64,000 bases of DNA from Acidobacteriota bacterium. GTDB lineage: Bacteria > Acidobacteriota > Vicinamibacteria > Vicinamibacterales > SCN-69-37. The notes under the pieces are model-generated. The model had not been told where the DNA came from, searched no databases, and worked only from the letters and a program-made list of their open reading frames with translations. The stretch lies in contig JADYYY010000005.1 in NCBI GenBank assembly GCA_020853395.1, forward strand, positions 124,001-188,000, written 5' to 3'. Positions 60,808 through 61,930 of the stretch are shown in pieces. How positions within the stretch are numbered: position 1 is the stretch's first letter; every line of letters begins with the position of its first letter. A program made the position numbers and the translations under genes.

Positions 60808-61584
60808 ATGACGTTCCTGCCGAAGGAGCACGGCGCCTACGGCCAGATGGCGTTCCCGCTCGTCACGGCGCTCCTCGTCAGCGGCGCGAGCGTGGCGACG
60901 CTCGCCTGGATGCTGGCGGTGGCGATGGCCTTCGTGGCGCACGAGCCGGCGCTCGTGCTGCTCGGTCATCGCGGCGCGCGCGCGCGGCGCGAGCGGGGCC
61001 CACAGGCGGCGGTCGCCGCGGCGATCACCGGCGCGGTCGCGCTCGCGGCGGCCGCCGCGGCCGTGCTCACCGCGCCGGCGGCCGCGCGCTGGGCATTTGC
61101 CGTCCCGGCGATTCCCGCGCTCGTCGTGGCGCTGCTCGTCGCGGTCAATCGCGAGAAGAGCGCCGCCGGCGAGCTCGCGGTGGCGATCACGTTCTCGCTC
61201 GCCGCCATCCCGGCCGCGCTCGGCGCCGGGGCGGCCGTCTCGACGGCGGTTGCGATCGGCCTGGTCTTCTCGGTGGTCTTCACCGCCGCAGTGCTCGCGG
61301 TCCGCACGGTGATCCTCGGGGTGCGCGGCGGCGGGAACCCGGATGCCGTCCGCGCCACGTGCATCGCCATCTGGTGGGTCTCTGCCGCGGCCGTGGCGGG
61401 GCTCTGGTGGACCAGCAGCACGCACCGGCCCGCGTCGATCATGCTCGGCGCCGTGACGCCTGCGATCGTCTTCGCCCTCGCGATCACGTTCCGCCGGCCG
61501 CCGCCATCCCGGCTGAAGGCGCTCGGGTGGTCGATCGTCGGCGTCAGCACGCTCGCCACGCTCGTTCTCGTCGCCGGCTTCTGA
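60808..61584 (+). CDS. YwiC-like family membrane protein
   Basis: 258 residues with about eight TM helices. The N-terminal PKEHGAYGQM is the hallmark of YwiC-like proteins, and the conserved Asn-Arg in VAVNREKSAAGE follows the fourth helix. Biochemical function unknown; Bacillus YwiC lies beside the nitrate-reductase regulator genes, but no such genes are here. Divergent from the AGE gene. Confidence 0.88.
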   Translation: MTFLPKEHGAYGQMAFPLVTALLVSGASVATLAWMLAVAMAFVAHEPALVLLGHRGARARRERGPQAAVAAAITGAVALAAAAAAVLTAPAAARWAFAVPAIPALVVALLVAVNREKSAAGELAVAITFSLAAIPAALGAGAAVSTAVAIGLVFSVVFTAAVLAVRTVILGVRGGGNPDAVRATCIAIWWVSAAAVAGLWWTSSTHRPASIMLGAVTPAIVFALAITFRRPPPSRLKALGWSIVGVSTLATLVLVAGF

Positions 61585-61930
61585 GGGCGCGTTTCAGAAC
61601 TCCCGCGGCGGGGTGGCGCCGGACCGGGGTCGCGCCGCGTGGCGCGCAGGCGACGCCCGTGATCACGCGCGTCGTGCCGCGCACCACGTGGGGCTGTCCG
61701 GCGACACCCCGCGCGCGCCGAGTTCTGAAACACGCTCTGGATCTTCGTTCGCGGACGCCGCCAGCCTGGCAGCCTCTGGTGCCGGACTTCCGCTCTGCCC
61801 GGGCTGTGCGGGCCTCGCACCGCCCGCTCCATCTCCTGGCCTCGCAACGTTCTCGACGACGTCGATTGGCCCCGTAGAATCAGGCCGTCGGGGCTCTCGA
61901 CACGTCTCGGGCGTGCGCGTCCGACGTGCC
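61585..61930. other. 346-base gap between convergent YwiC-like and topoisomerase genes
   Basis: The first half is the palindromic element listed separately. The second half (61736-61930) has no convincing open frame. A TAGAAT hexamer at 61875-61880 resembles a rightward -10 but has no -35 and would transcribe antisense to the topoisomerase 3' end. Confidence 0.6.
61587..61735. repeat. 149-bp near-perfect palindromic (MITE-like) element
   Basis: The left end GCGCGTTTCAGAACTC matches the reverse complement of the right end GCGTGTTTCAGAACTC in 15 of 16 positions. The symmetry continues inward (GCGGGGTGGCGCCGGAC against GCGGGGTGTCGCCGGAC) to a central GTGATCAC at 61659-61666. No coding capacity and no obvious target-site duplication. 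As RNA it would form one long hairpin. It may be a miniature transposable element or a very large bidirectional terminator. Confidence 0.75.

What the first reader, a model, noticed from the sequence alone, without database searches (positions are those of the whole stretch)
61587..61735. 149-bp palindromic element between convergent genes
The entire element is one imperfect inverted repeat with nearly identical ends (GTTTCAGAACTC) and a GTGATCAC centre, and no coding capacity. That fits a miniature inverted-repeat element or a genome-specific palindromic unit. I saw no second copy in this window.
Basis: seen in the sequence. Interest (0 to 1): 0.6.

Follow-up and report, generated by a model that had tools for sequence, protein, structure and literature searches.

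The report
Mobile hairpin repeat shared across phyla
The 149-bp palindrome is one of about 25 copies in this genome of a small non-coding mobile element whose folded core recurs in multi-copy form in genomes labelled as at least six bacterial phyla, a repeat family I found described in no library or paper I could search.

Summary
The palindrome is real (z = -7.5, 0 of 200 shuffles) and not single-copy: about 25 places in the genome carry it, the nearest 2.5 kb beyond the window. It runs 61585-61737: 18-bp terminal inverted repeats (GAGYGYGTTTCRAAACTC type) around a ~105-nt core (61608-61712). The 3-bp flanks are TGA, which is the stop codon of the upstream gene, and TGG. In relatives the same kind of terminal repeats carries exact 3-bp duplications, mostly TNA (14 of 18 complete copies). 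This is a MITE; no transposase with matching ends was found. The core is the surprise. It is a separate module, conserved within different outer arms in many Acidobacteria and in genomes labelled Aminicenantes, Nitrospirae, Rokubacteria, Conexibacter/Solirubrobacterales and Krumholzibacteriota, at 2-29 copies each. Its helices covary strongly (347 compensated cells against 94 +/- 14 shuffled) while asymmetric internal loops stay fixed. In this genome the copies decay in place, so the fold seems selected for propagation rather than for a host role at each site. It has no Rfam match, no RAYT partner and no GTAG/CGTC tag. Best reading: a REPIN-like structured mobile hairpin riding inside an IS5-like MITE. 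What moves the core is unknown.

The parts
61582..61584 (+). left target-site duplication TGA, which is also the stop codon of the upstream YwiC-like gene
   Evidence: sequence; right copy is TGG (61738-61740), 2 of 3 match; relatives show exact 3-bp duplications, mostly TNA
61585..61602 (.). left terminal inverted repeat GGGCGCGTTTCAGAACTC (family GAGYGYGTTTCRARACTC)
   Evidence: shared by most copies in the genome
61608..61712 (+). conserved structured core (covariance model R1, 48.9 bits, E 1.7e-7); a somewhat degraded copy that has lost 3 nt of the conserved GACAGGACCC motif (here GACACCCC)
   Evidence: family alignment and structure
61617..61624 (+). 5' strand of helix P2 (CGCCGGAC)
   Evidence: pairs with 61696-61703; strongest covariation in the family
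61696..61703 (+). 3' strand of helix P2 (GTCCGGCG)
61659..61666 (.). apical GTGATCAC; common in this genome's copies but not conserved in the wider family, whose apical region varies in length and sequence
61720..61737 (.). right terminal inverted repeat GAGTTCTGAAACACGCTC
61738..61740 (+). right target-site duplication, now TGG (one mismatch to TGA)

Best explanation
The element is a composite of two mobile modules. The outer module is a MITE: 18-bp terminal inverted repeats that in relatives are bounded by 3-bp duplications, usually TNA, as an IS5-like DDE transposase supplied in trans would make. The inner module is a ~105-nt structured palindrome that exists independently, without these arms, in other lineages. 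It folds as one strand: P1 (GGGT/ACCC), a fixed asymmetric loop GG/ACAGG, a covarying P2, a one-sided 5' bulge, P3 (GCCCC.../...GGGGC), a GAG/CGAGSA internal loop and a variable apical helix. Inferred mechanism: the core spreads as a selfish element through a folded single-stranded intermediate (ssDNA or RNA) recognised by an unidentified enzyme, and it tends to sit inside palindromes, as some REP dimers do. In this lineage a core sits inside a MITE, and the pair was amplified together to about 25 copies by the MITE route. Insertion at TNA lets it land on stop codons without damage, because the duplication restores TGA or TAA. Shown: multi-copy, terminal repeats, target duplications in relatives, modularity, covariation, patchy distribution. 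Inferred: single-strand intermediate, mobiliser, order of assembly.
For: About 25 copies in this genome, with shared ends found only around this element. Exact 3-bp duplications in 14 of 18 complete MITE copies, 13 of them TNA, against 6.3 expected when left and right flanks are re-paired. Arms and core part company. The core is conserved with different arms in other families of the order and with only 2-3 extra copy-specific pairs elsewhere. The same arms hold other palindromes in L319 and L333. Structure: 96% of cells paired, 347 compensated cells against 93.6 +/- 13.6 shuffled and 18-46 when slid; GT exceeds AC 105 to 27. In the own genome pairing is not maintained: 89 broken single changes, 36 GT, 28 AC, 2 compensated doubles (AC are among the 89), and 91.3% paired against 90.0% shuffled. 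Neighbouring genes are unrelated housekeeping genes. Distribution is patchy: 18 of 396 genomes of the phylum. REP dimers inside palindromes are a published precedent (PMC3733652, section on association with other repeats).
Against: No transposase with matching terminal repeats was found in this genome or in several relatives, and no mobiliser of the core was found. The window copy's own duplication is imperfect (TGA/TGG), and only a few own-genome copies show exact ones. Repair of quasi-palindromes by template switching can create compensated changes without selection on a folded strand, although it should also erase the fixed asymmetric loops. The flank re-pairing control for duplications is harsh but not extreme (its largest value in 2000 draws was 16 of 19). 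No empty site was found. The phylum labels rest on metagenome-assembled genomes.
Confidence: 0.68

Rival explanations
1. A plain MITE: the whole 153 bp is a non-autonomous derivative of a lost IS, its interior has no function, and the palindrome is a DNA-level by-product.
For: Terminal repeats, 3-bp duplications, copy number, decayed copies.
Against: The interior is the most widely conserved part. It recurs with other arms in other families and phyla, with covarying helices and fixed asymmetric loops, and the same arms occur without it (L319, L333).
Confidence: 0.15
2. A functional structured RNA (an RNA-processing, mRNA-stability or regulatory element in 3' regions) that is multi-copy because it serves many genes.
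For: Strong covariation and GT over AC asymmetry; by an ORF heuristic most own-genome copies lie downstream of genes, 9 convergent and 1 divergent of 21 classified; ERIC elements affect mRNA stability (PMC2229807).
Against: Pairing is not maintained among copies within this genome; neighbouring genes are unrelated; presence is patchy within the phylum; no Rfam match. Downstream placement also follows from survival of insertions at stop codons.
Confidence: 0.1
3. A REPIN, i.e. a REP dimer moved by a RAYT (Y1 HUH) transposase.
For: Size, palindromy, copy number and residence inside palindromes resemble REP dimers (PMC3733652).
Against: No conserved GTAG or CGTC tag; no Y1 transposase found in G000, G056 or G061, which hold many copies; of 19 Y1 loci only one had a weak core-like hit nearby.
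Confidence: 0.05

Closest known systems
IS5-type MITEs (TNA target duplication)
   Same: short, non-coding, terminal inverted repeats, multi-copy, 3-bp TNA-type duplication in relatives
   Different: no autonomous partner found; carries a structured core conserved far beyond the reach of the terminal repeats
REP dimers / REPINs (GTAG and CGTC families)
   Same: multi-copy extragenic palindromes, sometimes inside longer palindromes (PMC3733652)
   Different: about 105 nt with a conserved multi-helix architecture, no GTAG/CGTC tag, no RAYT association
ERIC / RU-1 elements of enterobacteria
   Same: 127-bp multi-copy small mobile element, MITE-like, with an RNA-level effect reported (PMC2229807)
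   Different: described from enterobacteria, whereas this core occurs in several other phyla; no sequence relation is known to me (not tested)

Membership tests
MITE (non-autonomous DDE element) | short, non-coding, terminal inverted repeats | tested here: met
MITE (non-autonomous DDE element) | many dispersed copies in the genome | tested here: met
   about 25 places
MITE (non-autonomous DDE element) | target-site duplication | tested here: met
   14 of 18 complete copies, nearly all in relatives, 13 TNA; imperfect TGA/TGG at the window copy
MITE derived from an IS5-family element | terminal repeats shared with an autonomous IS | tested here: not met
   no DDE_Tnp_1 or DUF4096 locus examined had matching ends; the partner may be lost, elsewhere or of another family, so the IS5 origin is a likeness (TNA duplication), not a membership claim
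REP/REPIN (GTAG or CGTC superfamilies) | unpaired GTAG or CGTC tag at one end of the stem | tested here: not met
   no conserved tetranucleotide outside P1 in 90 copies with flanks
REP/REPIN (GTAG or CGTC superfamilies) | RAYT transposase in the genome or flanked by the repeats (GTAG type) | tested here: not met
Known Rfam structured RNA family | match to a covariance model | tested here: not met
   ten loci, E up to 10: only unrelated sub-threshold hits
ERIC | ERIC consensus sequence | not tested
   no ERIC reference sequence was compared

The most novel reading that the evidence does not exclude
The core is a new class of structured mobile hairpin, able to move by itself through a folded single-stranded intermediate with an unknown enzyme, preferring palindromic targets, and spread across several bacterial phyla; MITEs such as the window copy are only one of its vehicles.
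Probability: 0.35. Interest if true: 0.8.

Novelty: new variant of a known kind. Interest (0 to 1): 0.62.

Why it matters
Small mobile palindromes (REP, ERIC and other MITE-like repeats) are mostly described family by family within narrow groups. Here one architecture, with fixed internal loops and covarying helices, recurs in several deep phyla, and its fold is kept between lineages while copies decay within this genome. That points to a shared recognition or replication mechanism for a folded strand that is not yet known, and the covariance model makes it searchable.

Tried and rejected
Local terminator: rejected (about 25 copies; no T-run). RAYT/REPIN: rejected. IS5-type partner via DUF4096 and DDE_Tnp_1: none with matching ends. 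Host gene association: none, neighbours are unrelated housekeeping genes. Phage or plasmid spread: no viral contig match, no phage match, one 30-nt plasmid match. Known RNA family: none. Literature: no paper describing it found.

Full report
Check of the observation. The stretch at 61587-61735 folds into one long imperfect hairpin, far beyond shuffles (z = -7.5), with 19-nt inverted ends that are 89% complementary and GTGATCAC at 61659-61666. It lies between a YwiC-like gene and a gyrB/parE-type gene transcribed towards each other. The window holds one copy.

Copies in the genome. A search of the whole genome gave 28 rows, which are 25 distinct places once three reverse-strand re-hits of the same palindromes are removed. 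The ends follow GAGYGYGTTTCRARACTC, and full-length pairs of these ends are found only around this element. Aligned copies show where the family stops: the window copy runs 61585-61737, flanked by TGA (61582-61584) and TGG (61738-61740). The left TGA is the stop codon of the upstream gene. Several other copies also abut stop codons, for example L004, L008, L018, L019 and L021. In relatives with a related terminal repeat (AGAGYGCGTTGCRRAATTA), together with one own-genome copy, 14 of 18 complete copies have exact 3-bp flanking duplications, 13 of them TNA, against a mean of 6.3 when flanks are re-paired (the script listed 19 pairs, of which L350 is a chance match and is left out). This is a MITE. 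No transposase with such ends was found.

The inner module. A search of relatives with the consensus gave matches in 27 of 60 genomes, most of them confined to the middle ~105 nt. Around that middle the outer arms differ: GAGCCTGTGAAGAAATCGCG, GAGCGTTACAGAACRAAGTGACAA, GCGGTTTCAYAACC, GTGTTGAYAGCGC and others. Conversely, the same MITE arms hold other palindromes in L319 and L333; the interior of L333 begins GTAG and ends CTAC like a GTAG-tagged REP dimer. They lie in records labelled Acidobacteria, Aminicenantes, Nitrospirae, Rokubacteria, Conexibacter/Solirubrobacterales and Krumholzibacteriota. A covariance model then found 2-29 copies per genome in eleven of twelve such genomes, 20 in this one. 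One genome reached by the pattern (L252) had none, so single pattern hits are not proof. Within the phylum only 18 of 396 genomes were positive under strict filters. Lineages have their own versions, for example AT-richer P1 stems in G151 and G344 and longer apical parts in Rokubacteria, which argues against simple contamination.

Structure. On 101 distinct sequences 96.0% of cells form standard pairs, with 347 compensated cells against 93.6 +/- 13.6 in shuffles and 18-46 when partners are slid. P2 carries the strongest signal. GT pairs exceed AC mismatches 105 to 27, though about half of the GT cells come from one P3 position, and the alignment was fitted to the model. The asymmetric parts, GG opposite ACAGG, the one-sided 5' bulge and the CGAG(C/G)A loop, are fixed or nearly so. 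That is hard to reconcile with simple palindrome repair by template switching, which remains a caveat for the helices. The window copy has lost 3 nt of the conserved GACAGGACCC motif, so it is probably a degraded copy.

Where selection acts. Within this genome, single changes in paired core positions mostly break pairs: 89 broken (28 of them AC), 36 become GT wobbles, and only 2 double changes keep a pair. Paired cells are 91.3% against 90.0% in shuffles. In the Aminicenantes genome fen_413, P2 is 100% paired with compensated changes between copies. The simplest reading is that the fold is needed by propagating copies, and that most copies here decay where they landed. This is inference.

Mechanism. 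Shown: MITE ends, duplications in relatives, two modules, covariation, patchy multi-copy spread, no conserved neighbours. Inferred: the core moves as a folded strand with an unknown enzyme. Copies without MITE arms have 2-3 extra base pairs below P1 that differ from copy to copy (mean run 2.1 against 0.6 in the null), which could mean insertion into short palindromes. REP dimers inside palindromes have been reported (PMC3733652). In this lineage the core rides inside a MITE, and the composite spread as a unit. That an IS5-family enzyme makes TNA duplications is from my own knowledge of that family, not tested here.

Comparison. It works like a MITE on the outside and like a REP dimer on the inside. 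It meets the MITE criteria except for a known partner. It fails the REP/REPIN criteria (no tag, no RAYT) and matches no Rfam family. No paper describing it was found, within the limits of the held library.

Noticed in passing
L317, L318, L331, L251, L281, L278, L275, L277, L324, L266: Other small hairpins are inserted inside copies of the core (for example GGGGTCCCCAACGCGGCAGCCGCGTTGGGG and GGAAAAAGGGGACACAGAAC...GTTCTGTGTCCCCTTTTTCC), giving palindromes nested within palindromes.
   Followed up: partly
L319 and L333: MITEs with related terminal repeats carry other palindromes instead of the core; L333 looks like a GTAG-tagged REP dimer.
   Followed up: partly
L314 and L315: About 90-bp MITEs that keep only P1 and P2 of the core, an internal deletion that may still be mobile.
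   Followed up: no
L004, L011, L017, L023, L025 flanks: Heptamer-like repeats (GGCTTACGG and variants) surround several copies in the own genome.
   Followed up: no
L009 (G000:C19:103673-106797): A tandem duplication of about 1.06 kb; each unit holds a gene for a protein with a PEP-CTERM-like C-terminus (read from the sequence), followed directly by a copy of the element with a truncated right end.
   Followed up: no
L250, around 2.6 kb on the minus strand: A core copy flanked by a direct repeat, CGTTTTTCTTATTAGATA / CGTTTTTCTCATTAGACA, possibly a long target duplication.
   Followed up: no
L177, L196, L221 flanks: Nitrospirae copies sit inside arrays of ATTCACCG-like short repeats.
   Followed up: no
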